Shown one piece after another: positions 3,271 to 41,286 of a DNA stretch of 64,000 nucleotides (within the stretch, counting starts at the first letter, position 1; each line of letters opens with the position of its first letter). Under the pieces are notes generated by a model that was not told the origin of the DNA, ran no database searches, and was given only the letters and a program-made list of their open reading frames with translations. The position numbers and the translations under genes are program-made. This DNA is from Alicyclobacillus sp. SO9 (GTDB lineage: Bacteria > Bacillota > Bacilli > Alicyclobacillales > Alicyclobacillaceae): positions 1,860,001 to 1,924,000 of the forward strand of contig NZ_CP066339.1 of NCBI RefSeq assembly GCF_016406125.1, in the 5' to 3' direction.

Positions 3271-3351
3271 CTAGGTTAGAACACTTATTTTTATGTAATG
3301 ACATGGTCGGAACTATATTTGTGGAAGAGGTTAAGGGGGACTCATATATTT

Positions 3352-5373: not shown

Positions 5374-6680
5374 TGGTTTTCAGTGAGTTACCGTCCTATC
5401 AGAACCTAAAAACTGGTGACCAACCCTGGTGGGGACAGATCCCATCTCATTGGGAGAGTCGACGCATATCTCAACTCTTTTACCTCGGAAGAGGAAGAGT
5501 TATAAGTAAAGAAGAACTTGCTGAACGGCCAGGCCCATATCCGGTATACTCATCACAGACGGAGAACGACGGCGAGTTCGGGAGATTATCCACGTATGAT
5601 TTTGATGGTGATTTTCTTACTTGGACTACAGACGGAGCGAACGCTGGGACTGTGTTTAGACGCTCAGGGAAATTCAATTGTACTAACGTTTGTGGCACTC
5701 TGGCGCCAAGAATTATTATGGATTTGTCCTATTTTCGATACGCACTATCTTTGGAGACAAAGAGGCATGTCCGTCTGGATATTAATCCTAAACTAATGAA
5801 CAATGAGATGTCAGTGATTAAGGTTTTACTCCCTCCTTTGGATGAACAGAAGAGGATTGGTTCATTTCTCAATTTCTACACAGCAAAACTTGATGAACTT
5901 ATCGAAAAGAAGCAACGGCTCATCGAACTCCTACAAGAGAAACGCCAAGCCCTCATCACCCAAGCCGTTACCAAAGGCCTTGACCCGAATGTTCCCATGA
6001 AAGAGTCGGGGATTGAATGGTTAGGGGAAGTGCCGGCGCATTGGGAGATTAGAAAGCTTAAATTCTTAGCAACATTTCGTGGTGGTGGCACCCCATCAAA
6101 AGACGAACTTTCGTTTTGGAACGGAGAGATACCCTGGGTGTCGCCTAAGGATATGAAAAATGATGTCATTGTAGATACCGAAGATCACATAACAAATGAA
6201 GCAATAGTTTCAAGTGCTACTTCTCTAATTCGGAAGGACAGTATACTTATAGTTGTTCGTTCTGGGATTTTGCAGCATTCATTTCCTGTTGCGATCAACA
6301 GCGTAGATGTAACTTTGAATCAGGATATGAAAGGACTAGTACCAGCAAAATCAGTGTCACCTCAGTTCTTATTTTGGTTACTCAAAGGCTCCGCAGCTAG
6401 TCTCCTTTTCGATTGTCGTAAGGTTGGGGCTACAGTGGATAGTTTAGATATGGAATCACTTTATAACTTTTCCGTGACTGTACCTCCACGGTACGAACAA
6501 GATGCTATTTCTTCACATTTAGAAGGGCTTTGTAAGACAATAGATGCTGCTGTTGGAAAAATCACTAAACAAATAACATTATTTCTGGAATACCGCCAAG
6601 CCATCATCTCCGCTGCCGTCACAGGTCAAATCGATGTCCGCAATTATGTCGATGCCGAGACAGAGGAGGCCACTTCATGA
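5370..6680 (+). CDS. hsdS: Type I restriction-modification system, specificity subunit (HsdS)
   Basis: This subunit recognises the bipartite DNA target for the type I complex. Two target-recognition domains are visible: one following QIPSHWESRRISQLF near the N-terminus and one following EVPAHWEIRKLKFLATFRGG in the middle. Each ends in a conserved linker (LPPLDEQKRIG; VPPRYEQDAISSHL) and a long coiled-coil helix such as IEKKQRLIELLQEKR. The half-repeat design is typical of full-length HsdS. I take the start as ATG 5370, which overlaps the hsdM stop and follows GGGTGGGCGA; GTG 5358 is an alternative. It overlaps the next gene by 4 bases. The recognition sequence cannot be read from the sequence alone. 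Confidence 0.93.
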   Translation: MMVFSELPSYQNLKTGDQPWWGQIPSHWESRRISQLFYLGRGRVISKEELAERPGPYPVYSSQTENDGEFGRLSTYDFDGDFLTWTTDGANAGTVFRRSGKFNCTNVCGTLAPRIIMDLSYFRYALSLETKRHVRLDINPKLMNNEMSVIKVLLPPLDEQKRIGSFLNFYTAKLDELIEKKQRLIELLQEKRQALITQAVTKGLDPNVPMKESGIEWLGEVPAHWEIRKLKFLATFRGGGTPSKDELSFWNGEIPWVSPKDMKNDVIVDTEDHITNEAIVSSATSLIRKDSILIVVRSGILQHSFPVAINSVDVTLNQDMKGLVPAKSVSPQFLFWLLKGSAASLLFDCRKVGATVDSLDMESLYNFSVTVPPRYEQDAISSHLEGLCKTIDAAVGKITKQITLFLEYRQAIISAAVTGQIDVRNYVDAETEEATS

Positions 6681-7594
6681 GCGACATTAAGCTGTTTCGT
6701 ACCAATGGTTCAGTTGAAGAGCTTTCCGGTACTTCTGTAGCACTAGAGAAATCACTTCAGACACTCTTTGAACAGAACCTGGAATCCCTTCTTGGTGTAC
6801 GCTTTCTCGCCTCTGAGCACACGACCGGAGCAGTTCATGGTGGTCGCATTGATACATTGGGTATTGATGAGAATAACTGCCCAGTTATCTTGGAGTATAA
6901 GCGGGCTACGAATGAAAATGTCATTAACCAAGGGCTCTATTACCTAGATTGGTTACTAGATCACCGGGCGGATTTCCAGCTCCTCGTACAGAAAGCTCTG
7001 GGAACTACGGTTGCGGAAGAGATCGACTGGAGTTCGCCCAGACTGATATGCATAGCAGGCGACTACACCAAGTTTGATCAACATGCTGTGCAACAGATCA
7101 ATCGCCACATTGAATTGTTTCGATATAAACGGTATGGGGACGAACTCTTACTCTTGGAGCTTGTAAACGTTCCTAATGATTCCAAATCTGTTGCAGTACC
7201 AGACGAGAAGATGCCTTCGGACGCCAAGCCATCTGGCTACAAGACGTTCGAAACTTATCTTAATCAGGCCGATACTGGCATGCAAGACCTGTACCAGGGG
7301 TTTCGAGACTATATGTTGGCTCTAGGGGATGACATACATACTAACCGATTGAATTTATATGAGGCTTACAAACGAATCAAAAACGTGGCGAGCATTGTCA
7401 TTCAACCTCAGAAGAAGGACTTCTTAGTATACATCTACGATCCAGGCACGGTGGACTACTCTGCGTTGAGTAATGTCAAGAACGTAGGTAAGAGCGGACA
7501 CTGGGGAACTGGCGATTTGGAGATTAGGTTAAGTTCAATAGAGGACTTGAAGCAAGTGGAGCCGCTGTTGTTACAGGCCTATGAGCGAAGCTAA
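6677..7594 (+). CDS. DUF91-like PD-(D/E)XK nuclease with C-terminal DUF5655 domain
   Basis: A 305-residue protein whose start overlaps the hsdS stop. Residues about 25-155 match the DUF91/NucS-like nuclease fold: LEKSLQTLFEQNLESLLGVR, then GGRIDTLGIDENN, then VILEYKRA, giving the D...E-x-K active-site pattern (Asp near 58, Glu-x-Lys near 72-74), then a helix with NQGLYYLDWLLDH. Residues about 185-305 match DUF5655, seen as a helix with LYEAYKRIKNVAS followed by strands and the turn GKSGHWGTGDLEIRL. Proteins of this design often lie inside type I restriction operons, as here between hsdS and hsdR. The likely role is an extra nuclease or an anti-restriction/repair helper; the substrate is unknown. 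Confidence 0.82.
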   Translation: MSDIKLFRTNGSVEELSGTSVALEKSLQTLFEQNLESLLGVRFLASEHTTGAVHGGRIDTLGIDENNCPVILEYKRATNENVINQGLYYLDWLLDHRADFQLLVQKALGTTVAEEIDWSSPRLICIAGDYTKFDQHAVQQINRHIELFRYKRYGDELLLLELVNVPNDSKSVAVPDEKMPSDAKPSGYKTFETYLNQADTGMQDLYQGFRDYMLALGDDIHTNRLNLYEAYKRIKNVASIVIQPQKKDFLVYIYDPGTVDYSALSNVKNVGKSGHWGTGDLEIRLSSIEDLKQVEPLLLQAYERS

Positions 7595-7618
7595 GGGGTA
7601 AGGAAAGGATGCGGTACG

Positions 7619-10597
7619 ATGACCCAGATACACACAGAAAAAGCTCTGGAAGAAGCGATTGAAGGTCATTTGATTGACTATGGATGGACCAAGGGCGATC
7701 CAGCCACATTCGACCGACAACGAGCGCTTTTCCCGGAAACCTTCACCAAATTTGTCCAAGAGACACAGCCAGACCATTACCAGAAGCTCGTGGGATTCTT
7801 TGGCGCAAAGACGAATGAAGAGATTGTAAAACGCCTAGTGCAGGTTCTCGAACGAGATGGGATGCTCAAAGTTATACGCAAAGGCTTTGATATTTATGGC
7901 GTCCCCGTCAAGACAGCGTTCTTCAAACCCGCAAGTGGTTTGAATCCCGAGACCATTGCACGTTATGAACAGAATGTCCTGACGGTGACCAGGCAGGTGC
8001 ATTACAGCGTCAAGGACAAAGAGAAATCGCTCGACATGGTACTATCCATCAATGGCCTTCCAGTCATGACCCTAGAACTGAAGAATCAATATACGGGGCA
8101 AAGAGTTCAGAATGCTATACGGCAATACAAGGAGGACCGAGATCCACGAGAACTGCTCTTTCAATTTAAGAAGAGGGCATTAGTTCACTTTGCGGTTGAC
8201 CCTGACGAAGTCTATATGACCACGAAGCTCAATGGCAAAAACACCTTCTTTTTACCGTTTAATCGTGGCTACAACTTTGGTGCTGGAAACCCACCATCGG
8301 ATGGCTTCCGTACGGCATATTTGTGGGAAGATGTCTGGCAGAAGGACAGCTTCCTCGAGCTGCTTCAGAAATTTCTTCACCTTCAGGTAGAGGAAAAGGT
8401 CAAAGACGGAAAAAAGACGACCACCGAAACGATGATTTTTCCTCGCTATCATCAACGTGACGCCGTGTTGCGTATCCTTACGGACGTGCTCAAAGTGGGA
8501 CCGGGCCATAATTACCTCATCCAACACTCTGCTGGTAGCGGGAAAACCAATACAATCGCTTGGCTGGCGCATCGGCTCTCTAATCTACATGGCTCAGATG
8601 ATAAATCCATCTTTGACGGGATTATCGTCATTACCGACCGCAAAGTCCTCGACCGACAACTTCAAGATGCGATATATCAGTTTGATCATGTCCAAGGCGT
8701 CGTACAACAGATTGACAAGAATTCCAAGCAACTCAAAGCCGCTCTGGAAAATAAAGAGGCAAAGATCATCATCTCTACGCTCCAAAAGTTTGGTGTTATC
8801 TCCAACCAGGTGGCAGACCTATCTGATAAAAATTTCGCTATTGTCGTTGATGAAGCACACAGCAGTCAAAGCGGTAAGGCTGCTGATGCTGTTAAGGAAG
8901 TCCTTGCTGCTGGATCATTAGAAGAAGCAGAGCACATCCAGCGTGAAGTGGATGCGAGGAATACAGATATGGAAGACAGAATTGTCGAAAAGGTAGCGAA
9001 AGATGGGCCTCAAAAGAACTTGAGTTACTTTGCTTTTACTGCGACACCAAAGGCAAAGACTATCGAAATGTTTGGGCGTAAGCCTTCTCCAGAAGAAAGC
9101 GCACAGCCCTTTCACCTGTACAGTATGCGTCAAGCCATTGAGGAAGAGTTTATCCTTGATGTGCTCAAAAACTACACGACCTATAAGGCCTTTTATAAGT
9201 TGGCCAAGGCGGTTGAAGACGACCCAACGCTTGAAGAAAAGCCGGCCAAAAAAGCTATAGCACGGTTTGCTTCGCTTCATCCTCACAACGTATCTCAAAA
9301 GACCGAAATCATGGTTGAACACTTCCGTAACGTTACTCGAAATAAGATTGGAGGACGAGCCAAAGCCATAGTCGTCACCAGTTCCCGTCTGCATGCGCTG
9401 CGCTATAAAAAAGCCTTCGATGAATACATTCAGCGCAAGCACTATACCGACGTCCAGACCCTCGTTGCATTCTCTGGAACTGTAGTCGATGAGGATATAT
9501 CTTATACCGAGCCAGAGATCAATGGTTTTGGCGAAGGTGAACTCCCTGAGAAATTCGACACGGATGATTATCAGGTTCTTATCGTAGCGAATAAGTATCA
9601 GACCGGTTTTGACCAACCGCTTTTGCACACGATGTATGTCGATAAGAAGCTAAGCGGGATACAAGCTGTCCAAACGTTGTCTCGTCTCAATCGGAAAACA
9701 CGAGGGAAAGAGGATACCTTTGTGTTGGATTTTGCCAATGAGGCGGATGACATTCGAAAGGCATTCCAAGACTATTATGAGGTTACCAATCTCGGCGAAG
9801 CCACTGACCTTAATCTGATATTCGACCTAAAGAGTCGGCTTGAGCAGGTGCAACTTATATGGCCTGATGATATTGAAGCACTATGTGAGGTGTTCTATTC
9901 GGGAAAGGCAAAGAATGCTGCGGCACTGCACAAATATACTGACCCAGCGGTTGAGCGCTTCAAAGCCCTTCCCAATGATGGGCAAGAGGAATTTCGGTCT
10001 ACCTTATCGACGTTTGTACGAGTGTACAGTTTCGTGACACAAATTGCTCCGTTCCAATCCGTGGCTATGCATAAGTTCTACACATATACGAGACTTTTGC
10101 TTAGAAAACTTCCACAGCGTGGCCGGGTCACACTTGATCTGGATGATGAAGTCGCCATGGAATATTATCGCCTTCAGGAAACGTGGAATGGAAATATTGC
10201 GCTCGCAAAGGGTGAACAAGGGGAAGTAGACGGGATTACGCAAGCTGGAACCGGGACCAATGAGAAGAAGATGGCACAGCTTTCCTCGATTATTTCTGTG
10301 CTCAATGAGGCTTTCGGTACAGATTTTACAGAAGCTGACCGGTTGTTTTTCGAACAAGTTGAAACGGACATCATGGAGGACGAAGATATCGTACAAGCAG
10401 CTCGCTCCAATACGATGGAGAATTTCAGCTATGCCTTTGACGATGTCTTTCTGAGCAAAGTCATTGACCGCATAGGAACGAATGATGAGATTTTTGCAAA
10501 AATCATGAACGAGCAAAAGTTCCAAGATGCTGTGAAGAGTTGGATCATGAAATCGGTGTACACGAAGCTTCACAATCCTGACCAACCTTCGCAATAA
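7619..10597 (+). CDS. hsdR: Type I restriction-modification system, restriction/translocase subunit (HsdR)
   Basis: The motor and nuclease subunit, which pulls DNA past the bound complex and cuts it. The N-terminal nuclease domain carries LPVMTLELKNQYTGQ, with the Glu-x-Lys at about residues 153-155. The superfamily 2 helicase core has a Walker A site (HSAGSGKTNT, about residues 303-312), DEAH near residue 411, motif III FTATPK, and motif VI LSRLNRK. The C-terminal helical domain that docks on the methylase completes the expected length (992 residues). The ATG at 7619 follows GGAAAGGATG. It is the last core gene of the operon and appears intact, so the system is probably active. Confidence 0.95.
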   Translation: MTQIHTEKALEEAIEGHLIDYGWTKGDPATFDRQRALFPETFTKFVQETQPDHYQKLVGFFGAKTNEEIVKRLVQVLERDGMLKVIRKGFDIYGVPVKTAFFKPASGLNPETIARYEQNVLTVTRQVHYSVKDKEKSLDMVLSINGLPVMTLELKNQYTGQRVQNAIRQYKEDRDPRELLFQFKKRALVHFAVDPDEVYMTTKLNGKNTFFLPFNRGYNFGAGNPPSDGFRTAYLWEDVWQKDSFLELLQKFLHLQVEEKVKDGKKTTTETMIFPRYHQRDAVLRILTDVLKVGPGHNYLIQHSAGSGKTNTIAWLAHRLSNLHGSDDKSIFDGIIVITDRKVLDRQLQDAIYQFDHVQGVVQQIDKNSKQLKAALENKEAKIIISTLQKFGVISNQVADLSDKNFAIVVDEAHSSQSGKAADAVKEVLAAGSLEEAEHIQREVDARNTDMEDRIVEKVAKDGPQKNLSYFAFTATPKAKTIEMFGRKPSPEESAQPFHLYSMRQAIEEEFILDVLKNYTTYKAFYKLAKAVEDDPTLEEKPAKKAIARFASLHPHNVSQKTEIMVEHFRNVTRNKIGGRAKAIVVTSSRLHALRYKKAFDEYIQRKHYTDVQTLVAFSGTVVDEDISYTEPEINGFGEGELPEKFDTDDYQVLIVANKYQTGFDQPLLHTMYVDKKLSGIQAVQTLSRLNRKTRGKEDTFVLDFANEADDIRKAFQDYYEVTNLGEATDLNLIFDLKSRLEQVQLIWPDDIEALCEVFYSGKAKNAAALHKYTDPAVERFKALPNDGQEEFRSTLSTFVRVYSFVTQIAPFQSVAMHKFYTYTRLLLRKLPQRGRVTLDLDDEVAMEYYRLQETWNGNIALAKGEQGEVDGITQAGTGTNEKKMAQLSSIISVLNEAFGTDFTEADRLFFEQVETDIMEDEDIVQAARSNTMENFSYAFDDVFLSKVIDRIGTNDEIFAKIMNEQKFQDAVKSWIMKSVYTKLHNPDQPSQ

Positions 10598-15352: not shown

Positions 15353-16108
15353 TTAAAATTCTGCCCCTGCTTGGCGCCAAAAGAATGGCCGGTTTAGTCC
15401 ATCAGCGTCGAATGAATCGACTGCCTTAAATCCCTGAAAGGGAACGAGTCTCTTCCTGTGAAGTAGCAAGCGTAGGTCGGTTAGTAGCCGAACTGTCATA
15501 GTATCGGTTTCCGAATCTGCTATTTGGGGTTCGATGATGGAATTAACTTTTCTCCAAGAAGTCCAAAAAAGGCAATTGTAGGATTCATTCACGCCTTTGT
15601 TTCGAAGAAGTTCAGCAGATTCTTGGATGTCAGCCCTGGGAAGCGCATAGTGAGCGGTTACATAAAAGAGATACTTTCGCTCTGAGGAAGAGATTTTCAT
15701 ATAGTTGGCATCACTAACATTAAGACGATTCGTCACCAAATCGTAGTATTGCTCGGCCAACTGGTCCCCATGTGACCACGAATGGCTGTCCAAACTATTA
15801 CTCTTTGGCGACGTGTATTTACACTCGACTATGATTGTCGTAACGGTTCCGTCCTGCCCTGTAAGAATGCACAAGACATCTGGTTCCCGGTGAAAACCTG
15901 TAGTTTTAGGCCAGAACAAATACTCAGCATCAACAACAGGACCGTGCTCCCTGAAACTTTCTCCGAGGAGATTTTTACTAGTTCTGAGGAATGGAATAAG
16001 CCCTCTACCTGGACTAACGTACTTGAACGTTCCGAAGACATCCGACGTTAATAGGTCTTCGGATTCTTCTTGAGCCGATAGTTTTCCATGCAGTTCTGCA
16101 AGAGTCAT
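15353..16108 (-). CDS. Putative PD-(D/E)XK nuclease
   Basis: 251 residues with a strong AAAGGAG ribosome site before ATG 16108. A nuclease-type core is visible at about residues 72-100: FHREPDVLCILTGQDG then TTIIVECKYTSPKS, giving D...E-x-K. Upstream, ESEDLLTSDVFGTFKYVSPG and later DQLAEQYYDLVTN fit a helix that often follows the lysine strand in restriction-like folds. It is the first gene of a two-gene minus-strand unit with 14738-15316. A role in DNA restriction or repair is likely; the target is unknown. Confidence 0.72.
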   Translation of the reverse strand: MTLAELHGKLSAQEESEDLLTSDVFGTFKYVSPGRGLIPFLRTSKNLLGESFREHGPVVDAEYLFWPKTTGFHREPDVLCILTGQDGTVTTIIVECKYTSPKSNSLDSHSWSHGDQLAEQYYDLVTNRLNVSDANYMKISSSERKYLFYVTAHYALPRADIQESAELLRNKGVNESYNCLFWTSWRKVNSIIEPQIADSETDTMTVRLLTDLRLLLHRKRLVPFQGFKAVDSFDADGLNRPFFWRQAGAEF

Positions 16109-16652: not shown

Positions 16653-17363
16653 GTGTTTTTCGTGAGAGAAGAAGAACCGATTCGTCTGAATGAGATCAAT
16701 AACTTAGTGTGGTATGGAAAGAAGAGAGACAGGAAGCGAGTTGTGACACAGTGGGCTGATCGAGAGTTTTACGGGGTCTGGGAGGCTGCAATGCAGGAGG
16801 CGTTTGACCTTCTGGGCATGATGGACAGGTTCAGCACTATGACAAGTGATGAGGCTGGAATTGAGAAGGCCAAGCCGTCTGGAGCTGAGGAACTCATCCC
16901 TGTTCCGGGGGACCAAAACCGGAGATTGCTGCGAAAGGCCACTTTGAACATAGCTGAGCCAACGAGCCGGTTTGACCAAGTTTTACTTGAAAATGGTACG
17001 GCGATCCGTTATACAGGTGACAAAGAAACAGCGCTAAAGCAATGGGGGGCGCTGACAGAACTGCTCGCACAGACGACGATGATGGCTATCGTGACTCCAG
17101 GACTGCAATATTACGTGCAGGGAACGCAGGTGGGGTATACACCGGCCACACGGAACCTTTTTCGGCGCAGTAATACCCTGGAGCGAATTGGGTTGCCAAG
17201 CAAACCTCATTGGAGGGCGAATGTGTCTGGATACGTGATAGACATTCATGGAGACTGGGACGAAATCAGGAAAACTCGCAAATCGACGGGTTACAACATG
17301 TTTCAGATGTTACAAGTGAGGATCAATGAGGAACTGGAGAAGGCGCTCAGGAAGGAGAGATGA
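16653..17363 (+). CDS. Protein of unknown function, 236 residues
   Basis: GTG start at 16653 following AAGGGGA with eight bases between; a GTG at 16662 is also possible. The product has a helical N-terminal part (REEEPIRLNEINNLVWYGKK, WADREFYGVWEAAMQEAFD), then an alpha-beta core with RYTGDKETALKQWGALTEL and TTMMAIVTPGLQYYVQGTQV, and a charged C-terminal helix. The codon pattern is coherent over its full length. I cannot assign a family, and no neighbour suggests a function. Confidence 0.6.
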   Translation: MFFVREEEPIRLNEINNLVWYGKKRDRKRVVTQWADREFYGVWEAAMQEAFDLLGMMDRFSTMTSDEAGIEKAKPSGAEELIPVPGDQNRRLLRKATLNIAEPTSRFDQVLLENGTAIRYTGDKETALKQWGALTELLAQTTMMAIVTPGLQYYVQGTQVGYTPATRNLFRRSNTLERIGLPSKPHWRANVSGYVIDIHGDWDEIRKTRKSTGYNMFQMLQVRINEELEKALRKER

Positions 17364-18624: not shown

Positions 18625-19557
18625 GTGCGTGATGTAGACAGGGAATATAGTCATCTATCGAGTGAGGATCGTTTTTTGGTTTGGTTAAGCGAGCACGTGA
18701 AGAGTCATGTCATTCAAAAAGCAGGGGGCCCTTTATATCACTATACGACTGCAGGCGCATTAATTAGCATTATAGAAAATAGAGAACTTTGGTTGTCACA
18801 GAGTGATTTCTTGAACGATCCTCAAGAAATGACATATGGAATCAATGTCCTTCATGAAGCGATTCACGCATACCCCATTTCAGATGAGATCGAAAGAAAA
18901 ATTTTAACTGAAATCCTTCGTGTCATTGACGATCAAAGAGCTAAAAGGAAATTTGTTTTATCGCTATCGACGGACCAGGATTCATTGATGCTGTGGTCTC
19001 ACTACGCTAAGACAGACGGATACGCAATTGGATTTAAGCAGGATGCATTGGTAAATAGACTTTATAGCGAAGAGGATAAGGTAAATTGTTTTATGGCTTA
19101 CTACGGGAAAGTCCTCTATAGTACAGAGGATCAAATGGGCGATGTTCACAGTTTTATCGCCCCTGTATTTGACTATTTACGGAATTTTCATGATGAAAAC
19201 CGAAAATACTTATCAAATATTTTAATCGACGAAATCTCGTTTGCTTTATCCTTCAAATTACTTCTATACAAATCTCCTGTCTTCCACCCAGAACGAGAGT
19301 TTCGATTTGTACTTACTCAAGGAAACGACTCTTGTCATTGGCCCAATGTAGGGCTTCGAGCTGTACGAGGTACTATAGTACCATATGCTAAAGTCTCGTT
19401 GGGTAATCGTGGCGACATGCTTAACTGTATACAGAGCATTCAGGTGGGACCTGCATACCATAACGATGAGAATACAGAATTGGGAGTAAAGGAACTACTC
19501 TATTACAATAAACTGCAACGAATAAAGGTGGAAAAGTCCGGTTTCCGGATTCGTTGA
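18625..19557 (+). CDS. DUF2971 family protein
   Basis: 310 residues from GTG 18625 after AAAGGGGGG. The pattern GGPLYHYTTAGALISIIENR then ELWLSQSDFLNDPQEMTYG near residues 33-75, FVLSLSTDQDSLMLWSHYAK near 112-131, GYAIGFKQ, and later FHPEREFRFVL is the typical order of DUF2971 (LYHYT...W.....NDP.E...S.....LMW.HYA...GFciGF...E.E.R). The biochemical role is unsettled; members are frequent in accessory regions. It stands alone between unrelated genes. Confidence 0.85.
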   Translation: MRDVDREYSHLSSEDRFLVWLSEHVKSHVIQKAGGPLYHYTTAGALISIIENRELWLSQSDFLNDPQEMTYGINVLHEAIHAYPISDEIERKILTEILRVIDDQRAKRKFVLSLSTDQDSLMLWSHYAKTDGYAIGFKQDALVNRLYSEEDKVNCFMAYYGKVLYSTEDQMGDVHSFIAPVFDYLRNFHDENRKYLSNILIDEISFALSFKLLLYKSPVFHPEREFRFVLTQGNDSCHWPNVGLRAVRGTIVPYAKVSLGNRGDMLNCIQSIQVGPAYHNDENTELGVKELLYYNKLQRIKVEKSGFRIR

Positions 19558-19762: not shown

Positions 19763-20557
19763 ATGGCCAAGCAAGACGAGATGAAGGTTATCGATCTGAA
19801 TGGTGTACGGGTTGTTGTAACAGGGGCTTCAAGGGGCTTGGGATTGGCTATGGCAGAGGCCCTGCTCGAGTCAGGAGCAACCGTGGCCCTGGCAGCTCGC
19901 TCTGGAGCTAGGCTGGATAGAGAGGTACAACGCCTCGTTGACGAAGAATATGATGCGTACAAGATGCCTCTGGATGTTCGGTCCGAGGAGTCCGTCGCAG
20001 AAGCGGTCAGTTGGGTGCATAAACAGTGGGGTGGACTTGATGTGCTGGTGAACAACGCCGGCATTGGAATGAGGACAGTCAATCCACGATTCATGGTCGA
20101 GCCCCAATCATTCTGGCAGGTGACTTCGGACGGCTTTCGGGACGTCATTGACACGAATCTCACTGGCTATTTCCTCGTATCCCGTGGATTTGCACCGATG
20201 ATGGTAGAACAGGGAAAGGGCAAGATCATCAACGTCTCCATGAATCACTCCACTATGCGCAGGAAGGGTTTTGTCCCTTATGGCCCGTCTCGTGCTGGTG
20301 CCGAATCACTCTCTTACATCATGGCTGAAGACTTATTGCCGCATGGGGTCACAGTGAATATGCTGTTGCCTGGTGGGGCGACGGAAACTGGAATGATTCC
20401 CGAAGAATTAAAGACACAACTGAAGATGCCTCTGCTGAAGGCAGAGGTGATGGCGGAGCCGATTGTCTTCCTGGCTTCTGAGCAATCGGACGGGATCACG
20501 GCTGAGAGGATTGTGGCTACGGAGTTTGAAGGGTGGTATGCTAGTCGACTGGATTAG
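19763..20557 (+). CDS. Short-chain dehydrogenase/reductase (SDR) with Arg in place of catalytic Lys
   Basis: 264 residues. The Rossmann NAD(P) site TGASRGLG is at about residues 20-27 and the family motif NNAG near residue 97. The catalytic tyrosine is in PYGPSRAG (Tyr near 173); the expected YxxxK lysine is Arg 177, so the acid/base mechanism may be altered. The C-terminal LLPGGATETGMI matches the NADP-binding loop of the family. The substrate cannot be told. It stands as a single gene and converges with the minus-strand operon at 20650. Confidence 0.88.
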   Translation: MAKQDEMKVIDLNGVRVVVTGASRGLGLAMAEALLESGATVALAARSGARLDREVQRLVDEEYDAYKMPLDVRSEESVAEAVSWVHKQWGGLDVLVNNAGIGMRTVNPRFMVEPQSFWQVTSDGFRDVIDTNLTGYFLVSRGFAPMMVEQGKGKIINVSMNHSTMRRKGFVPYGPSRAGAESLSYIMAEDLLPHGVTVNMLLPGGATETGMIPEELKTQLKMPLLKAEVMAEPIVFLASEQSDGITAERIVATEFEGWYASRLD

Positions 20558-20649: not shown

Positions 20650-21210
20650 TTATCTCACCTTATTCATTGCCGCTTTACGAGCTGCGTTATGTGCCCCACG
20701 ATAGTGGGGATTATTGGATTGCTCCTTAGGTGGTAGATAGGTGATTTCGAGGGATAATTCTGGCCAATCTCTTTCAATGGCAGCCTGAGCGTCGTGAATT
20801 TTCTGGACGCACTTCCCATAGACTTCGTGCTCTGTATGGAGCAATAACTCGTGTATATGGTCTACATCGCTCATTATTATAATGCTTTCGGGAAGAAACC
20901 GTCGCCCTTGTAAATCATTATCGAGATGCCGAAGGGCGTGCAGTAGTGCACACACTTCGCCGAGCGTCCCGTGGAGCGCACCTGACCGATAGAACCGTTC
21001 TGATGTCACTGTGACCCAGCCGTCGTATACGTACGATGCTGCTACACCATACGTGTTAGTTTTGTGATGGATTGAAGAGTCACAGTACACTCGCATGGTT
21101 TTTTGGTCCCACAACTGTTGATCCATTTCGGCCTGTCTGGCTCTGGATGGCCCCCAGTCCTTTCGCCGTAGGGCCATAGGAGAGGGAGGACGTGAAAATC
21201 GTCGATACAT
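20650..21210 (-). CDS. RNase H-like fold protein
   Basis: 186 residues with GGAG seven bases before ATG 21210. After a basic N-terminal stretch, the RNase H order is visible: MRVYCDSSIHHKTNTYGVAA (first Asp near residue 44), GTLGEVCALLHALRHL (Glu near 84), SIIIMSDVDHIHELLLH (Asp near 114) and a final RGAHNAARKAAMN, where family members carry the fourth acid or a His. Three acidic active-site positions are kept, so it may cut RNA in an RNA-DNA hybrid or act on another nucleic acid. It is the last gene of a three-gene minus-strand operon, 60 bp after the SANT-repeat protein, and probably works with it. Confidence 0.75.
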   Translation of the reverse strand: MYRRFSRPPSPMALRRKDWGPSRARQAEMDQQLWDQKTMRVYCDSSIHHKTNTYGVAASYVYDGWVTVTSERFYRSGALHGTLGEVCALLHALRHLDNDLQGRRFLPESIIIMSDVDHIHELLLHTEHEVYGKCVQKIHDAQAAIERDWPELSLEITYLPPKEQSNNPHYRGAHNAARKAAMNKVR

Positions 21211-21270
21211 AGAATCATCTCCGTTATATATACAGTCTATAGCTGTTCATCTATTGGAACGCTGTAACAG

Positions 21271-22824
21271 TTAAAACGGCTTGATACGCTTGATTCCAAG
21301 TCGACTTGCCCGTGATACAATCGCCATCCAAGATCTGTTGGCAAACGCTGCTTCAATCACCGAACGTGGCTCTGCAGGGTACAATCGGCGCAGCCTGTCA
21401 TCTTCCTCGGCAGTCCATCCATTCTTCTTTAGGCCGTGGCGATGAGCACGGGTGCGGATGCTATCCAGAGATCTTCCGGGTAGAAGACCGAGGAGCTGAT
21501 CGTCAGACGTGGTTGCATAGTTATCTCGAAGAATCTCCTCTTCTGCCACGGTCCAAACATCCCGTCGCTTAACGCCAAGGCGGGATGCACGGGTGGCAAT
21601 ACCTTGCCACGAACGTCCTGGAAGCTTTTCGAGAAGTTCATCCTCAGTGGCATTGGCGTAGTTCGCCCGGATGATATCGTCCTCTTCTGGTGAGAAGTTC
21701 TTCGTCCCACGAGTCAGACCAAGGCCTCGGGCTTTGTGAATAACTGCGTGGCGGGTCCGAAATGTAGATAAATTGGTTTGTAATGCTTCAATAGACACCT
21801 TTCCATACTGGTTCCGGACGGTGTCCTCATCCTCAATACTCCAGGGGTTGCCGAATTTGGCGTGTTCCTTAGGGTCGTATAGGGGTTGATCCCAGTGATA
21901 ATACTGCCTCTCCAGTTCTTCCACATTCGACATATACGACTCGTAGTAAGTCTTGTCTCCATGCTGTAGGTCATGGACAATGTGATGGATTGTGTCGAGC
22001 ACTTCTGCAACGAACTCCTTTGTTAACTCATCTCCGAACCAGATAGGAATCCAAAACCAGCCGAGTTCTTCGGCATAATGCCGTTTCGCATAGTCACGGT
22101 TTCGCCGGCCGGCATGGGTGCGAACGTGATTGACCTCGACGGCGATTTTGAGCCCGGTCGGAAATTCGATTGGGATGTCGATTTGCCATCCACGGCCTCC
22201 AGACCAGTTTCGATTATGTTGCCATGGGACGACCGCATCACCGTACTCCTTCACAAGTGCATCACGGATCAGGCGCTCCGCAAGGGACCCGTCTTCAAGC
22301 AACGAGGTGTTTGAAGAATGGCGATTTGTGACGCCTGCCTCTTTTTTCAGCTTATTTGATACATGCCGGACCGCTGAATATTTGACACCGAGTTCGTAAC
22401 TGATTTCCTTTAGGCTCCGTTTCGAGTTTCGGATCATATCACGGATAGTTTGCTCCTGATCGGATGTGATTTTCCGATTCGCTAGGTTTAATGTCTTAAT
22501 ACGGGCGTGAACGGAAGGGACTGAACGTTGAACTTGCTGAGAAATCATCGGAATCGATGCACCTTTGGCGTACCATCCCTTGAGTGTGGCATCCTCCTGT
22601 TCTGTCCAGGGCTTGTCCTTGTAAGCAACAGCAACTTCGGATTCTGCTTTATCTCGCTGACGGATCTTGTTCAATGTGTTATATACGATACGCTCCGTAA
22701 TTGGCCCGTCAATCACGTTGGGGTCAGCATTGAGTTGATTTGCGACCTCTTTAGCGATGTGGTCTCGATAGAGTTCGGGTATGCGTCGGAGTAGGTAGTC
22801 GGCATCCTTTCGTCTTTGGGGCAT
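21271..22824 (-). CDS. Five-repeat SANT/Myb-like DNA-binding protein with central nuclease-like domain
   Basis: 517 residues, GAGGAGG before the ATG. One SANT/Myb-like repeat lies near residues 70-113 (KPWTEQEDATLKGWYAKGAS), and four more in the C-terminal third (NPWSIEDEDTVRNQYG, NFSPEEDDIIRANYANATED, DVWTVAEEEILRDNYATTSD, NGWTAEEDDRLRRLYPAEPR), each ending in a helix such as TRASRLGVK. A helix-turn-helix (SLKEISYELGVKYSAVRHVS) follows the first repeat. Between them, residues about 180-290 carry GRGWQIDIPIEFPTGLKIAV then EVNHVRTHAGRRNRDYAKRH and ELGWFWIPIWFGDELT, a restriction/VSR-like core with D...E-x-N, where Asn replaces the usual Lys. It may be a site-specific nuclease or an inactivated one serving as a binding module. 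Confidence 0.8.
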   Translation of the reverse strand: MPQRRKDADYLLRRIPELYRDHIAKEVANQLNADPNVIDGPITERIVYNTLNKIRQRDKAESEVAVAYKDKPWTEQEDATLKGWYAKGASIPMISQQVQRSVPSVHARIKTLNLANRKITSDQEQTIRDMIRNSKRSLKEISYELGVKYSAVRHVSNKLKKEAGVTNRHSSNTSLLEDGSLAERLIRDALVKEYGDAVVPWQHNRNWSGGRGWQIDIPIEFPTGLKIAVEVNHVRTHAGRRNRDYAKRHYAEELGWFWIPIWFGDELTKEFVAEVLDTIHHIVHDLQHGDKTYYESYMSNVEELERQYYHWDQPLYDPKEHAKFGNPWSIEDEDTVRNQYGKVSIEALQTNLSTFRTRHAVIHKARGLGLTRGTKNFSPEEDDIIRANYANATEDELLEKLPGRSWQGIATRASRLGVKRRDVWTVAEEEILRDNYATTSDDQLLGLLPGRSLDSIRTRAHRHGLKKNGWTAEEDDRLRRLYPAEPRSVIEAAFANRSWMAIVSRASRLGIKRIKPF

Positions 22825-22852
22825 CGTGGAGTGCCTCCTCTCTCACAGTGAG

Positions 22853-23149
22853 TCAATTTGGATACTCACCAAGTACATCTACCTCTATGTCGTCGGATGA
22901 CTCATCAACGGTGCCTGACGGACGATAACTTTGAGCTGAAAAATGTAGCGTGTCTTGGTCAATCTCTCGGTCAAGGACGATCAAGGAATTTCCAATTGTC
23001 ACGATGGCGGATTGTACACGATGTAGGTCTACAGAAATCTCACGTATGTGGTGTTCAATCCACTCAGCGTCTTCGGGCGTGAAAATGGTGAGTGTCAACG
23101 GACCGGAGGGATGAACAGTTTTAATTCGCCTATACCTGGCATCAACCAT
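22853..23149 (-). CDS. Small protein heading the SANT-nuclease/RNase H-like operon
   Basis: 98 residues with AAGGAGGG eight bases before ATG 23149. It begins MVDARYRRIKTVHPSGPLTL, has TPEDAEWIEHHIREISVDLH and later IVTIGNSLIVLDREIDQD, and ends in an acidic tail. An alpha-beta pattern is clear but no family is recognised. It is the first gene of a minus-strand operon, 28 bp before the SANT-repeat gene, and faces the CGNR regulator across a shared control region. Confidence 0.65.
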   Translation of the reverse strand: MVDARYRRIKTVHPSGPLTLTIFTPEDAEWIEHHIREISVDLHRVQSAIVTIGNSLIVLDREIDQDTLHFSAQSYRPSGTVDESSDDIEVDVLGEYPN

Positions 23150-23164
23150 GCGTCCGTCCCTCCT

Positions 23165-23255
23165 TTTTTAACCTCTTTTTGTATAAATTAAGGTTAATAG
23201 TATTCTGATTGAATTAACTTGTCAAACATGTACAATGAGGTTAAATAAAGCTGCT
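23165..23255. promoter_or_regulatory. Divergent control region with AGGTTAA inverted repeats and promoter
   Basis: TTAACCTC near 23168, AAGGTTAA near 23190 and GAGGTTAA near 23238 are copies of one heptamer in opposing orientations, a pattern expected of operator half-sites. TTGAAT at 23209-23214 and TACAAT at 23231-23236, 16 bp apart, form a plausible plus-strand promoter for the CGNR gene. The third heptamer copy lies just after the -10, where a bound protein would block transcription, which suggests autoregulation. Confidence 0.5.
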
Positions 23256-23273
23256 GCTTTGGAGGGATAAGCC

Positions 23274-23852
23274 ATGAAGACCACAGGACCATTAGTGGAG
23301 GGAAACTTGGCTATCGATTTTGTGAATACGGAAGAGATCCGCAGAGGGATACGGAAGGATTACATTGACACTGCCGATACGTTTTCTGTTTGGCTAACGG
23401 ATGAAGAGTTAGAAGGAGCAGTCTCGAAGGAACAACTTCCGTTTGAGGTTGAAATATGGCCTGAGGAGGCCATGGGGAAGGTTCATGAATTAAGGGAAGA
23501 GATTCGAGACAACGTGGAACAAACAGCGGAATGTGAAGAGGTGGGTCCACGGTTCGTTAAACAGATGGAATCATACATTGAAAAAGCCCCTTTTGCGATG
23601 AAGTTGCATGAAGGTCGGGTCGTCCATGTGCCAGTTGGGGATCCGGTTGAGAAGTTGTGCTCGCTGGTAGCAGCGGATGTGTTGCGAATGATTGGTGAAG
23701 GCCAACTAGAGCATGTGCGCAAGTGTGCGAATCCCGAATGCCTGTTTATGTTCGTGGATAGGGCGGGACGGAGAAAGTGGTGTTCCATGAGAAGGTGTGG
23801 AAATCGAGCGAAGGTTACGAGGCATTTGAAGAGGCAGGCCGGAGGCGATTAA
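23274..23852 (+). CDS. CGNR zinc-finger transcription regulator
   Basis: 192 residues. The N-terminal part begins GPLVEGNLAIDFVNTEEIRR, the ABATE-type domain that precedes CGNR fingers. The C-terminal CANPECLFMFVDRAGRRKWC then SMRRCGNRAKVTRHLKR is the CGNR zinc finger, with four cysteines and a basic DNA-contact helix. Proteins of this family are transcription factors sensing small molecules. It is divergent from the SANT-nuclease operon, with operator-like repeats between, so it is the best candidate controller of that operon and of itself. Confidence 0.9.
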   Translation: MKTTGPLVEGNLAIDFVNTEEIRRGIRKDYIDTADTFSVWLTDEELEGAVSKEQLPFEVEIWPEEAMGKVHELREEIRDNVEQTAECEEVGPRFVKQMESYIEKAPFAMKLHEGRVVHVPVGDPVEKLCSLVAADVLRMIGEGQLEHVRKCANPECLFMFVDRAGRRKWCSMRRCGNRAKVTRHLKRQAGGD

Positions 23853-24205: not shown

Positions 24206-24295
24206 GGAGAGGTGGTCGAGTGGTTTAAGGCAGCGGTCTTGAAAACCGTCGAGTTCGCAAGGGCTCCGTGGGTTCGAATCCCACCCTCTCCGCCA
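24206..24295 (+). tRNA. tRNA-Ser (anticodon UGA)
   Basis: A 90-base class II tRNA with acceptor arms GGAGAGG and CCTCTCC, discriminator G and an encoded CCA. The anticodon stem GCGGT/ACCGT encloses a loop with TGA. A long variable arm (GAGTTCGCAAGGGCTC) and the T loop GGGTTCGAATCCC fit tRNA-Ser. A terminator follows directly. It is the only intact tRNA in the window and marks the left border of the reshuffled island. Confidence 0.96.
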
Positions 24296-24844: not shown

Positions 24845-25150
24845 AAATCCGGTAATTTGTATCTGGGCCGGGGGTTTAATGTCGATCCAATCACGGCGGC
24901 GACAGTGGCGCTTTGAAGGAAAACCATAGTCTCTTCAATAATTTTATCGGAAAAGAATCGAAAACCTACCGACGCGAGCGCAATATGACGCTCGTTATAC
25001 CCTGGCCAACTGGGAAGTACAACGACTGATTGATTGCGTGACCACACAGAACGTTGACGGTTTCTACCAAGCGGCAGGGAGGAAAGAGGTATACGAGTTA
25101 AATAGATCCATCCGGGGACTATTCGCTGTCATGACTGCCAGTCGATGCAC
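24845..25150 (+). pseudogene. Decayed Sir2 family gene fragment
   Basis: The DNA aligns by eye with the middle of the intact Sir2 gene at 29067. Shared blocks include the runs around GCGACAGTGG, GAAAATCG-type sequence, the CACACAGAACGTTGACGG block (the TQNVDG NAD/active-site region) and CGCTGTCATGACTGCCA at the zinc-site start. Several small deletions shift the frame, the catalytic histidine codon has become AAT (TTAAAT where the intact gene has TTGCAC), and neither end of the gene is present. It is a dead copy. Confidence 0.75.
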
Positions 25151-29057: not shown

Positions 29058-29066
29058 GTGGGTAAT

Positions 29067-30128
29067 ATGGCCAATCAGTTCGAAGTTGTGCTTGAGGTCG
29101 GAGGCGAAGGCGGGAGCATTACTCTGTACGGTGTATCGTCAGAGAATGGATGGCGTTTTAGCCGTACCACGGAGGAAAGCGCACTTGGAGATATTGCAGA
29201 TCGGCCGACCGATTCTCTTGTACGAAAGAGCAAAGTTGTGGATTCTTGGGAGGAAGCACTCCAACTCGTGCAGCGCTACCCGTGGTATCGGCTCTCTCCA
29301 CGTAAAGTCCATCCGGATTTTGCGGCAAAGGTTTGGAAGGAAGTAGTGAACCGGCTCGACTGGATGGATCACGGTCGAGACCTAAACCGCTGGTCGCGGG
29401 TCTGTTTTGGTGACGGAGGTGCTCTTGGGGAATTGTCTCTATTGATGAAGAAATCTCAATCCACAGTGATTCTTACTGGTGCCGGCATGTCCACGGAAAG
29501 CGATATACCGGATTTTCGATCAAAGGATGGCTGGTGGCGTAATATCGATCCCACCACGGTGGCGACAGTGGACGCTTTGAAGGAAAACTATAGTCTCTTT
29601 CACGAATTTTATCAGATGAGAATCGAAAACCTAGAGTCACGAGTGCCGAGTGGCGGTCACTACATCCTGGCCAAGTGGGAAGAACAAGGGCTGATTGATT
29701 GCGTGGCCACACAGAACGTTGACGGTTTTCACCAAGCAGCCGGGAGTAAAGAGGTGTATGAATTGCACGGTTCCATCAGGACGATTCGCTGTCATGACTG
29801 CCAAAGTCCGGCAAGCATTGACGAGTTTGTTGCTGGGGACAGGTGCAGCCAATGTGGTGGTAAGCTGAGACCGAATCTCGTACTGTTTGGTGAATTGCTT
29901 CCACGTGATGCTTGGGAGCGCGCTCTTGCTGCTATCCGTCAGGCCGATTTGGTTGTGGTCATTGGGTCCAGCCTCCAGGTCTCACCCGTCAACACCTTGC
30001 CATCACTGACAAGCGGAAAAGTTGCGATAATCAACGCGGAGGAGACAGAGCAAGACGAAATGTTTGATATCGTAATACACGGCAAGGCGGGGGAGGTTCT
30101 GCCGAAATTGGATGAGGTGTTAGGGTAA
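29067..30128 (+). CDS. Sir2 family NAD-dependent deacylase fused to an N-terminal Sir2-associated domain
   Basis: 353 residues from ATG 29067, with AAAGGG eight bases upstream. Residues about 1-110 form a separate domain (VVLEVGGEGGSITLYGVSS, GWRFSRTTEESALGDIAD, EEALQLVQRYPWYRLSPRKV) that recurs as a free protein at 34241. Residues about 120-350 are Sir2: GAGMSTESDIPDFRSKDGWW near 138, TQNVDGFHQ, the catalytic His in YELHGSI near 234, four zinc cysteines (CHDC and CSQC) and VIGSSLQVSPVNTLPS. All catalytic residues are kept, so NAD-dependent deacylation or ADP-ribosyl transfer is possible. A decayed copy is at 24845, a stand-alone paralogue at 37675. The fusion suggests the N-terminal domain guides or regulates Sir2. 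Confidence 0.9.
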   Translation: MANQFEVVLEVGGEGGSITLYGVSSENGWRFSRTTEESALGDIADRPTDSLVRKSKVVDSWEEALQLVQRYPWYRLSPRKVHPDFAAKVWKEVVNRLDWMDHGRDLNRWSRVCFGDGGALGELSLLMKKSQSTVILTGAGMSTESDIPDFRSKDGWWRNIDPTTVATVDALKENYSLFHEFYQMRIENLESRVPSGGHYILAKWEEQGLIDCVATQNVDGFHQAAGSKEVYELHGSIRTIRCHDCQSPASIDEFVAGDRCSQCGGKLRPNLVLFGELLPRDAWERALAAIRQADLVVVIGSSLQVSPVNTLPSLTSGKVAIINAEETEQDEMFDIVIHGKAGEVLPKLDEVLG

Positions 30129-37674: not shown

Positions 37675-38430
37675 ATGAGGCGCGTAAGTCTGGGTGAGGA
37701 CGTACAGACCAAAATGGAGACGCTGGCTCTGTGGATGCAACGGTCACAGTCTACAGTCATATTGACTGGAGCCGGTATCTCGACGGAAAGCGGGGTGCCG
37801 GATTATCGTTCAGAAGATGGTTGGTGGAACAAGGTTGATCCGTTAACAATTAGTACCGCATCCGTGCTGAGCAGTAACTACGACCTATTCCATGAATTTT
37901 ACTCGAGTCGATTGCGTGCTCTTGGCCACGTTCAACCGAATCGTGGCCACCAAATTATCAGTGACTGGGAAGAACGAGGTCTGGTGCACACCATTGCCAC
38001 ACAAAATGTGGATGGTTTACATCAGTTGGCGGGTAGTACAAACGTCACTGAATTACATGGCACAATTCGGAGATTCCGCTGTTCGCGGTGTGATGCAACC
38101 GCTGAGTTGGAAGAGTTTCTGAATAAGGAGGCCTGTGTTCACTGTGGTGGGAATCTGAGGCCCAACGTCATTCTGTTCCAAGAGATGCTGCCTCAAGGCG
38201 CATGGGATGTGGCACTTAGGGCGATAACCAATGCCCATCTCGTGCTTGTCATCGGCACGAGTCTCCAAGTATCCCCCGTCAACCAGCTGCCTTCTATGAC
38301 GGCCGGTAAAATTGCGGTCATCAATATGGAGGAGACTGACTTTGACCATGGGTTTGATTTGGTCATTCACGGCACGGCTGGTGAAATTCTTGAACAAGTA
38401 AATGCATTGATTATGATCCCGTCTAGTTGA
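37675..38430 (+). CDS. Stand-alone Sir2 family NAD-dependent deacylase
   Basis: 251 residues, AAAGGGGG seven bases before the ATG. The Sir2 motifs are complete: GAGISTESGVPDYRSEDGWW, TQNVDGLHQ, the catalytic His in TELHGTI near residue 128, zinc cysteines (CSRC and CVHC) and VIGTSLQVSPVNQLPS. It aligns along its length with the Sir2 part of the fusion at 29067, with about half the positions the same by eye, but lacks the N-terminal domain. The next gene is an ADP-ribosylglycohydrolase 96 bp away in the same direction, so the pair could deal with ADP-ribose made or transferred by Sir2. Confidence 0.93.
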   Translation: MRRVSLGEDVQTKMETLALWMQRSQSTVILTGAGISTESGVPDYRSEDGWWNKVDPLTISTASVLSSNYDLFHEFYSSRLRALGHVQPNRGHQIISDWEERGLVHTIATQNVDGLHQLAGSTNVTELHGTIRRFRCSRCDATAELEEFLNKEACVHCGGNLRPNVILFQEMLPQGAWDVALRAITNAHLVLVIGTSLQVSPVNQLPSMTAGKIAVINMEETDFDHGFDLVIHGTAGEILEQVNALIMIPSS

Positions 38431-41175: not shown

Positions 41176-41286
41176 TAGGGAGGGTAATCACGAATGAACC
41201 AACGCATTTCGCATCCATTGCTTATGGAGTACACAGCAGTAATGTGAGTAACGGCGATGCAAGAACCAGGAAAAGGGGGATTTAAC

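What the first reader, a model, noticed from the sequence alone, without database searches (positions are those of the whole stretch)
20650..23852. SANT-repeat/nuclease-like protein in an operon with an RNase H-like protein, divergent from a CGNR regulator
Seen: one protein has five SANT/Myb-like repeats and a helix-turn-helix around a restriction-like core (D...E-x-N); the next gene has an RNase H-type D-E-D set; a third small gene leads the operon; and a CGNR zinc-finger gene faces it across repeated AGGTTAA heptamers. Known: multi-repeat SANT domains bind DNA; RNase H folds cut RNA in hybrids or act in integration. Inference: a DNA-targeting module with two nucleic-acid-processing activities under ligand control could be an undescribed defence or genome-arrangement system. 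I know of no named system with this set.
Basis: partly seen in the sequence, partly recalled or inferred. Interest (0 to 1): 0.85.

Follow-up and report, generated by a model that had tools for sequence, protein, structure and literature searches.

The report
CGNR-controlled DNA-nuclease and RNase H operon
A small bacterial operon pairs a predicted long-site DNA-cutting protein with an unusual RNase H and sits behind what looks like a conserved repressor switch; some of its parts turn up in other combinations in related bacteria, and its RNase H gene tends to lie near phage-defence genes, but what it does is untested.

Summary
Window 20650-23852 carries a three-gene minus-strand operon: a 98-aa leader, a 517-aa protein with five SANT/Myb-like repeats and a helix-turn-helix around a restriction-nuclease-like core, and a 186-aa RNase HI-fold protein. 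A divergent ABATE/CGNR regulator faces it.

New here:
(1) The same four genes lie together in one genome outside the order (G121; SANT 60% identical), with frameshifts in leader and regulator there.
(2) The CGNR-leader 'head' occurs once without this cargo (before a DnaG-type primase, G005). The leader alone precedes an Mrr-type nuclease once and a short SANT/HTH gene once.
(3) The 'AGGTTAA heptamers' belong to two dyads, TTAACC-N18-GGTTAA and TTAAC-N19-GGTTAA, lying on the operon's promoter-like site; the same pair occurs in G005.
(4) The RNase H family (15 of 398 class genomes, fragments included) has D-E-D plus a histidine where RNase HI has its fourth acid (by motif). A restriction, OLD or Gabija gene lies within 8 kb in 5 of 11 loci.

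Best reading: a repressor-controlled anti-mobile-DNA operon with exchangeable nucleic-acid enzymes. Defence is inferred, not shown. Main rival: cargo or competition module of a mobile element.

The parts
22853..23149 (-). leader gene, 98-aa protein of unknown fold; the part shared with other operons
   Evidence: no significant match: none in Pfam or PADLOC, best E 0.13 in NCBIfam and 0.32 in PHROGs; relatives in G121 (two), G010, G005 and G017
21271..22824 (-). 517-aa SANT-repeat protein with restriction-nuclease-like core
   Evidence: full-length relative in G121, 60% identical
22483..22623 (-). SANT/GcrA-like repeat 1 (residues 68-114)
   Evidence: VIA Z 8.4 over 48 residues to the GcrA DNA-binding domain 5yiu; GcrA Pfam model 31.0 bits against cut-off 26.9 in the G121 relative, 24.1 bits in the window protein
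22315..22482 (-). helix-turn-helix (residues 115-170)
   Evidence: secondary structure of the model; HTH_38 below cut-off
21955..22314 (-). restriction-nuclease-like core (residues 171-290): E183, D216, E230-x-N232, H237, R243-D244
   Evidence: helix-strand-strand-helix-strand-helix in the model; VIA Z 7.4 over 94 residues to Holliday junction resolvase 4tkd, Z 7.2 to 2eo0, Z 6.4 to VRR_NUC 4qbl; MTES_1575 REase 18.7 and 20.0 bits, below cut-off 38.2
21274..21846 (-). SANT/Myb-like repeats 2-5 (residues 327-517)
   Evidence: repeat alignment and shuffle test
20650..21210 (-). RNase HI-fold protein, 186 aa; D44, E85, D115 and H174
   Evidence: phrog_30328 E 8.3e-18, phrog_531 'Rnase H' E 1.1e-5
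23274..23852 (+). ABATE/CGNR transcription regulator, divergent from the operon
   Evidence: zf-CGNR 52.2 bits and ABATE 40.4 bits, both above cut-off
23168..23197 (.). proposed operator dyad 1, TTAACC-N18-GGTTAA; its right arm touches the -10-like hexamer of the operon promoter
   Evidence: same in G005 C10 (L104 3163-3192)
23214..23244 (.). proposed operator dyad 2, TTAACT-N19-GGTTAA; holds the -35-like hexamer of the operon promoter and the -10-like hexamer of the CGNR promoter
   Evidence: L104 3208-3238
23197..23225 (-). promoter-like site for the operon, TTGACA-17-TACTAT
   Evidence: same place relative to the dyads in L104 3191-3219, TTGACG-17-TATATT
23209..23236 (+). promoter-like site for CGNR, TTGAAT-16-TACAAT
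   Evidence: the scan found no counterpart in L104

Best explanation
It is a repressor-controlled operon of an accessory (defence-type) island that destroys foreign or competing DNA. The CGNR protein sits on two TTAACC/GGTTAA dyads and shuts off both itself and the operon. A signal (ligand or stress on its ABATE domain, or loss of the repressor when the DNA enters a new cell) opens the operon. The SANT protein reads a long composite DNA site with its five SANT repeats and HTH and cuts the DNA with its Vsr/MTES_1575-like core. The RNase HI-like protein removes RNA from RNA-DNA hybrids, for example replication primers or R-loops of the target. The leader protein is a partner or modulator shared with other nucleic-acid enzymes. 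Shown by calls: the gene set, its partial conservation, the RNase HI fold (predicted model), the conserved residues, the dyad pair, and the RNase H family's neighbourhoods. Suggested but not settled: the restriction-like fold of the core. Inferred: repression, DNA cleavage, hybrid cleavage, cooperation of the two enzymes, and the anti-mobile-DNA purpose.
For: The four genes lie together in G121 at 60% (SANT), 43% (RNase H) and 59-70% (CGNR, two pieces) identity. Third codon positions differ near saturation while protein is kept (SANT: differences 0.28/0.19/0.66 at positions 1/2/3), i.e. selection on the protein; the nuclease core is the most conserved part. RNase HI fold: Foldseek E 1.2e-8 to an E. 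coli RNase HI structure, VIA Z 14.8 over 133 residues to LC11-RNase H1. Core. Dyad pair conserved in length and spacing in two genomes, with the operon's promoter-like site in the same register in both. The leader also precedes an Mrr_cat nuclease (37.3 bits against cut-off 21). In 5 of 11 loci with the RNase H gene there is a restriction, OLD or Gabija gene within 8 kb; in the window a type I system ends 10 kb away; in G323 BREX genes lie on the same contig at least 11 kb away. Nine control stretches (107 ORFs) gave no restriction, Gabija or BREX model among the 25 of 27 matched models shown.
Against: No activity has been tested. No PADLOC model matches the operon's proteins at E 0.01 or better. 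The complete set is known from two genomes only, and in G121 the leader and CGNR genes carry frameshifts. Two further SANT copies are remnants (G017, G040) and two are cut by contig ends (G005, G015). The nuclease core match is below Pfam's cut-off, its Z values are middling, Foldseek alone found nothing at E 0.001, and the SANT model is weak (mean pLDDT 67). The control stretches also matched defence-labelled models (Cas12f, IetA, Csx1, Csa3, TRIP13, AriA, PDC-S33, RT-Protease_XI and mads models), so a PADLOC match alone says little. Around the RNase H gene in L064, L027 and L011 I saw no restriction-type genes. A tightly repressed operon is, as far as I recall, not the commonest defence layout.
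Confidence: 0.42

Rival explanations
1. Cargo or competition module of a mobile element (integrative element, satellite or free-standing homing gene): the SANT nuclease cuts empty or rival copies of the element so that the island spreads or excludes relatives, and the CGNR repressor acts as an immunity-type switch.
For: Tyrosine recombinases sit directly upstream of the leader in G010 and of the SANT gene in G015, and a recombinase-like remnant before the leader and SANT remnants in G017; a serine-recombinase-like gene (by eye) and a DnaG-type primase lie near the set in G121, and a primase plus integrase beside the CGNR-leader head in G005. Patchy distribution and decayed copies. SANT-repeat matches to phage HNH endonucleases.
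Against: I saw no recombinase within about 8 kb of the set in the window (by eye), no repeats marking ends of an element around it, and no empty site. I know of no role for RNase H in homing.
Confidence: 0.3
2. Replication or maintenance module of a (former) plasmid-like or phage-satellite element: RNase H processes primers, the SANT protein binds the origin and nicks or resolves DNA (its core resembles Holliday junction resolvases), the primase belongs to the same module.
For: DnaG-type primases in the related loci L011 and L104; best structural matches of the core are archaeal Holliday junction resolvases; many phage RNase H proteins among the nearest viral folds, and a full-length relative in two Brevibacillus phages.
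Against: I saw no replication initiator, helicase or partition gene in the set. The RNase H gene stands without the SANT gene in 8 of 11 loci.
Confidence: 0.16
3. Remnant of phage genes: a D5-like phage transcription regulator and a phage RNase H retained by chance, without a joint function.
For: phrog_323 'transcriptional regulator, D5-like' E 3.8e-33 with its best stretch at residues 21-189, and phrog_30328 for the RNase H.
Against: Gene order, the divergent regulator and the reading frames of SANT and RNase H are kept between distant genomes with near-saturated third positions. The nuclease core is outside the best stretch that matches the phage regulator.
Confidence: 0.1

Closest known systems
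Odn, the origin-directed nuclease of phage ICP1 (PMC8263062, abstract and outline seen)
   Same: A nuclease domain joined to a DNA-binding domain gives sequence-specific destruction of a competing mobile element.
   Different: Odn is phage-borne and stands alone; its DNA-binding part resembles origin-binding proteins of its target. Here the binding part is five SANT repeats plus HTH, inside a regulated operon with RNase H. The nuclease families were not compared.
EDxHD (I-Bth0305I) and other phage homing endonucleases with tandem DNA-binding modules (PMC3943268, passages seen)
   Same: Small nuclease core tethered to a series of DNA-binding modules that read a long site.
   Different: Homing endonucleases drive the mobility of their own reading frame. 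This gene lies in an operon with a regulator; homing was not tested.
MTES_1575/Vsr-like PD-(D/E)XK nucleases (Pfam PF18741)
   Same: Only Pfam match of the isolated core in both relatives (18.7 and 20.0 bits).
   Different: Scores below the curated cut-off of 38.2; E-x-N at the second motif; SANT repeats on both sides.
RNase HI
   Same: Fold; three catalytic acids D44, E85, D115.
   Different: H174, by motif alignment, where RNase HI has its fourth acid; extra N-terminal stretch; patchy distribution (15 of 398 class genomes, fragments included).
ABATE/CGNR regulators (Jann_2411, PMC2954205, abstract and outline seen)
   Same: Both domains above Pfam cut-offs.
   Different: Here paired with a nuclease operon over a dyad pair kept in a second genome.
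Mrr-type nuclease with the same leader (G121 contig 48)
   Same: Homologous leader gene directly before a nuclease gene.
   Different: Nuclease of the Mrr_cat family, no SANT repeats, no CGNR seen on the 3.7-kb contig.

Membership tests
RNase HI | RNase HI fold | tested here: met
   pLDDT 87.6 model; Foldseek E 1.2e-8, VIA Z 14.8 over 133 residues, rmsd 3.1
RNase HI | first three catalytic acids D-E-D | tested here: met
   D44, E85, D115 invariant in 10 sequences; paired with D10, E48, D70 of E. coli RNase HI by hhalign, although that comparison is not significant by itself (probability 0.7%, E 0.085)
RNase HI | fourth catalytic aspartate (DEDD, PMC9719913 passage) | tested here: not met
   Motif H174-N-A-A-R lies where RNase HI has D-E-L-A-R (that motif is recalled); histidine in 9 of 10 sequences, tyrosine in one. 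The placement is by motif, not by a residue-level superposition. A D134H mutant structure of the E. coli enzyme exists (1kvb, listed); that it is active is recalled
RNase HI | cleaves RNA in RNA-DNA hybrids | not testable with these tools
   needs protein
PD-(D/E)XK / Vsr-MTES_1575 nucleases | alpha-beta-beta-beta-alpha-beta core | tested here: inconclusive
   order of elements roughly fits; VIA Z 7.4 over 94 residues, pLDDT 67 overall
PD-(D/E)XK / Vsr-MTES_1575 nucleases | score above the curated family cut-off | tested here: not met
   18.7 and 20.0 bits against 38.2
PD-(D/E)XK / Vsr-MTES_1575 nucleases | conserved acidic active-site residues | tested here: inconclusive
   E183, D216, E230, H237, D244 are identical in the only two full-length sequences; too few sequences to tell active-site conservation from the general 60-70% identity
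Homing endonuclease (EDxHD type) | moves its own gene into an empty site | not tested
   no empty allele available
Restriction-modification | companion methyltransferase in the operon | tested here: not met
   none among the four genes of 20650-23852; the type I genes at 3298-10597 have their own M, S and R subunits
Known defence system of PADLOC-DB 2.0.0 | match of component proteins | tested here: not met
   best E 0.012 for the SANT protein, no family for the other three
ABATE/CGNR regulator | both Pfam domains above cut-off | tested here: met
   40.4 against 24.4 and 52.2 against 24 bits
ABATE/CGNR regulator | binds DNA and represses | not testable with these tools
   only the dyad pair and promoter overlap support it

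The most novel reading that the evidence does not exclude
A new class of modular, repressor-gated anti-mobile-DNA system: a conserved CGNR-operator-leader head into which different nucleic-acid enzymes are slotted (SANT/PD-(D/E)XK nuclease plus a D-E-D-H RNase H; DnaG-type primase; by the leader alone, Mrr-type nuclease), with target choice set by a string of SANT repeats.
Probability: 0.22. Interest if true: 0.82.

Novelty: new variant of a known kind. Interest (0 to 1): 0.56.

Why it matters
If right, it adds two things that can be tested directly: a protein-guided DNA-targeting nuclease whose specificity comes from a countable string of SANT repeats, and a natural RNase HI-like protein with histidine at the fourth active-site place that often lies near defence genes. 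The dyad pair gives an immediate handle, because the proposed CGNR target and the operon's promoter-like site are placed to the base. If it proves to be mobile-element cargo instead, it still shows one regulatory head used with different enzymes.

Tried and rejected
Neighbour gene o16653 (16653-17363) as a fourth component: it lies near the set in the window, G005 and (a fragment) G121. In G010 it stands beside an SDR gene (by eye), about 8 kb from the leader relative but without the RNase H or full SANT gene, and the window genome has two more copies elsewhere. I treat it as a separate unit.

SDR (19763-20557), DUF2971 and PDC-M15A-like neighbours: no match in the G121 contig.

Integration at the tRNA-Ser (24206-24295): the repeat search of window 1-30000 (18 bp or more) reported no repeat of the tRNA end.

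Viral, phage, plasmid and named-genome collections: viral-contig scans with SANT, RNase H (45) and leader (118) queries gave one weak partial hit and otherwise none. Genome contigs gave only the G005 record, Alicyclobacillus sp. MAG HOT.MB2.91. The short patterns these scans need make absence uninformative. By tblastn the SANT protein has partial matches in 17 phage and 20 plasmid records, none covering 80%; the leader has none in phages.

Control for the defence-island count: one of my ten control stretches (L090) lay on the same contig as an RNase H gene and held BREX genes, so it was not a fair control. I report the count with it (79 models from 112 ORFs) and without it (27 models from 107 ORFs), against 293 models from 91 ORFs in the case set. 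Models are redundant, the lists shown are capped at 25, and the controls too matched some defence-labelled models, so these numbers are not system counts. The per-locus count of 5 of 11 comes from proteins I picked by eye for and from similarity to the window's type I genes. No significance test was made, and neighbouring ORFs were taken by length (150 aa or more), without gene calling.

My first operator pattern had the wrong spacing and found nothing; the corrected spacing is. The promoter scan as a whole finds no more sites than shuffles (3 against a mean of 5.0 in the window, 2 against 3.4 in L104); only the position of the sites is informative.

Novelty searches, of which I saw only the capped listings: 'EDxHD, homing endonuclease, Vsr' (15 of 25 listed), 'RNase HI, D134H, Asp134' (95, 8 of 9), 'RNase H, defence island, anti-phage, endonuclease, Myb-like' (96, none), 'tandem SANT, phage, nuclease, homing endonuclease' (97, 10 of 451), 'CGNR zinc finger, ABATE' (128, 15 of 62,643, mostly the ordinary word), 'RNase H-like, Mrr, SANT, defense island, restriction endonuclease' (129, 8), 'Alicyclobacillus, anti-phage, defense system' (137, 3), 'RNase H domain, phage defense, restriction endonuclease-like, operon, Myb' (138, none). 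No listed title or abstract start described this gene set. Of the papers, I opened PMC3943268 and PMC9719913 (passages) and PMC8263062 and PMC2954205 (abstract and outline).


Full report
Observation. The window lies in a 5.29-Mb genome. A genome of the same family in this collection, G005, has a contig of the same length (223,649 bases) with the RNase H match at the same end as the named record Alicyclobacillus sp. MAG HOT.MB2.91, so the family is most likely that of Alicyclobacillus (inference).

SANT protein. Five repeats of about 45 residues resemble each other far above shuffled copies. The order is N-terminal part, SANT 1, HTH, nuclease-like core, SANT 2-5. The AlphaFold model is from two sequences only (mean pLDDT 67, pTM 0.39). 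Foldseek found nothing at E 0.001 or better. The second look by VIA-align placed residues 180-290 on Holliday junction resolvases 4tkd (Z 7.4, 94 residues, rmsd 2.9) and 2eo0 (Z 7.2) and on VRR_NUC (Z 6.4), and residues 66-114 on the GcrA DNA-binding domain (Z 8.4, 48 residues). The Z values of the core are middling, but they agree with the sequence match to MTES_1575 REase, the only Pfam family found with the core alone in both relatives (E 0.0019 and 7.2e-4, below cut-off). PHROGs places its best stretch, residues 21-189, in a phage 'D5-like regulator' family (E 3.8e-33). Partial matches, none covering 80%, are in 17 phage and 20 plasmid records.

RNase H-like protein. The model is good (pLDDT 87.6, pTM 0.81) and has the RNase HI fold. 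Aspartate 44, glutamate 85 and aspartate 115 are invariant in ten sequences. Histidine 174 (9 of 10) falls where the fourth acid is expected by motif. The family was found in 15 of 398 genomes of the class at E 1e-5 (several of these are fragments), in 9 of 59 of the order (fragments included), and in 1 of 348 sampled from the phylum, the window's own (E 1e-6). A full-length relative is in three Brevibacillus phage records (two phages), and none in the plasmid collection.

Who has the set. SANT protein: full length in 2 of 398 class genomes, the window's own and G121 (six others match in part). In the order 5 of 59 have some match: the window, two cut by contig ends (G005, G015) and two remnants (G017, G040). 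In G121, which is not among the 59 genomes of the order, the order leader-SANT-RNase H with divergent CGNR is the same, but leader and CGNR are each split by a frameshift. In G005 the RNase H and the SANT C-terminus lie at a contig end. I examined 11 loci with the RNase H gene (one has an in-frame stop); the SANT gene is beside it in 3.

The head in other company. The leader has relatives in G121 (a second copy), G010, G005 and G017. In G005 contig 10 the CGNR gene (59% identical) and the leader are divergent as here, but a DnaG-type primase follows, then a short gene of unknown family. In G121 contig 48 a 394-aa Mrr_cat nuclease follows the leader; a 47%-identical relative of it is in G010. 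In G010 a tyrosine recombinase directly precedes the leader (overlapping it if the longest start is taken) and a 119-aa protein that I read as SANT/HTH-like follows (Pfam gave it only a weak MerR match); that recombinase is 73% identical to the one before the SANT gene in G015. Each of these alternative arrangements was seen once.

Operator. In 64 kb these are the only two places (three strand matches, shuffle mean 0.15, 0 of 100 reach three). Among the 104 loci then held, the pattern occurs only in copies of this locus and of G005 contig 10, where the two dyads have the same lengths and start 45 bp apart (46 here). G121 keeps at most degenerate versions. The operon's promoter-like site runs from dyad 2 to the right arm of dyad 1 in both genomes in the same register (23225-23197; L104 3219-3191). 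A CGNR promoter-like site lies on dyad 2 in the window, but the scan found none in L104. This is what a repressor of both directions would need; binding itself is inferred.

Neighbourhood. Within 8 kb of the RNase H gene, 5 of 11 loci hold a restriction, OLD or Gabija gene: L012 (OLD/GajA-like at 6.7 kb; a type I R gene at 8.7 kb), L026 (type I), L030 (type III-like and Ppl-like), L066 (GajA and GajB), L068 (type II R and M with Vsr). Beyond that, the window has a type I system ending 10 kb away, L029 has a protein kinase that matches PD-T4-6 models and, on the same contig at least 11 kb away, BREX genes, and L028 has a 1875-aa protein with Sacsin, HATPase and NOV_C matches, the first two below cut-off. 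L064, L027 and L011 show no such genes in my reading. Nine control stretches gave 27 PADLOC models from 107 ORFs: no restriction system, Gabija or BREX among the 25 shown, but Cas12f, IetA, Csx1, Csa3, TRIP13, AriA, PDC-S33, RT-Protease_XI and mads models. The sample is small, and neighbourhood shows company, not function.

Mechanism and verdict. The anatomy fits a repressor-gated operon that cuts DNA at a long site and clears RNA from hybrids, aimed at foreign or competing DNA (confidence 0.42). A mobile-element competition or homing module is the strongest rival (0.30). No activity has been measured. The components belong to known kinds; the combination, the head in other company and the dyad pair were not described in the libraries or paper listings searched here (searches listed under Tried and rejected).

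Noticed in passing
window 2263-10597: Type I restriction-modification cluster (HsdM 3298-5373, HsdS 5358-6680, HsdR 7619-10597) with PDC-S18-like and PDC-M72B-like genes; the HsdR is 77% identical to the one in G005 near its RNase H gene.
   Followed up: partly
window 15353-16108 and 18625-19557: Genes matching candidate defence families PDC-M15A (E 3.5e-6) and PDC-S31 (E 2.9e-14, with DUF2971) beside the operon.
   Followed up: no
L080 (G000 C1 3155000-3174500): A second place in the same genome holds two relatives of the o16653 gene and what read as near-copies of the PDC-M15A-like and 14738-15334 genes (by eye).
   Followed up: partly
window 29058-30128, 37675-38430, 38527-39858: Two genes that look like Sir2-type deacetylases and one like an ADP-ribosylglycohydrolase (by eye, no family call; the first and third were scanned without a PADLOC match at 1e-5).
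   Followed up: no
window 41257-47315: Two large overlapping genes that by eye resemble a PD-(D/E)XK nuclease/helicase pair of AddB/AddA type, following a relative of the WYL protein (40136-41119; similarity).
   Followed up: no
window 24934-25115 and 29599-29780: A 182-bp direct repeat, 79% identical, with shorter matching flanks, 4.7 kb apart.
   Followed up: no
L097 1719-3381 (G121 contig 48) and L079 7633-8844 (G010): A 394-403-aa family with an Mrr_cat domain towards its C-terminal side (Pfam call on the G121 member) and a long N-terminal part without a Pfam match; in G121 it follows the leader gene.
   Followed up: partly
L066 8773-13817 (G040): An RNase H-family gene lies beside, and divergent from, a Gabija pair (GajA, GajB).
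   Followed up: partly
L012 11398-11769, L104 304-744, L011 5468-5893: Short genes of unknown family beside the RNase H or primase genes; the L012 and L011 ones are related (49%, split by a frameshift in G121), and the L104 one ends similarly (RRLDVIL, by eye).
   Followed up: no
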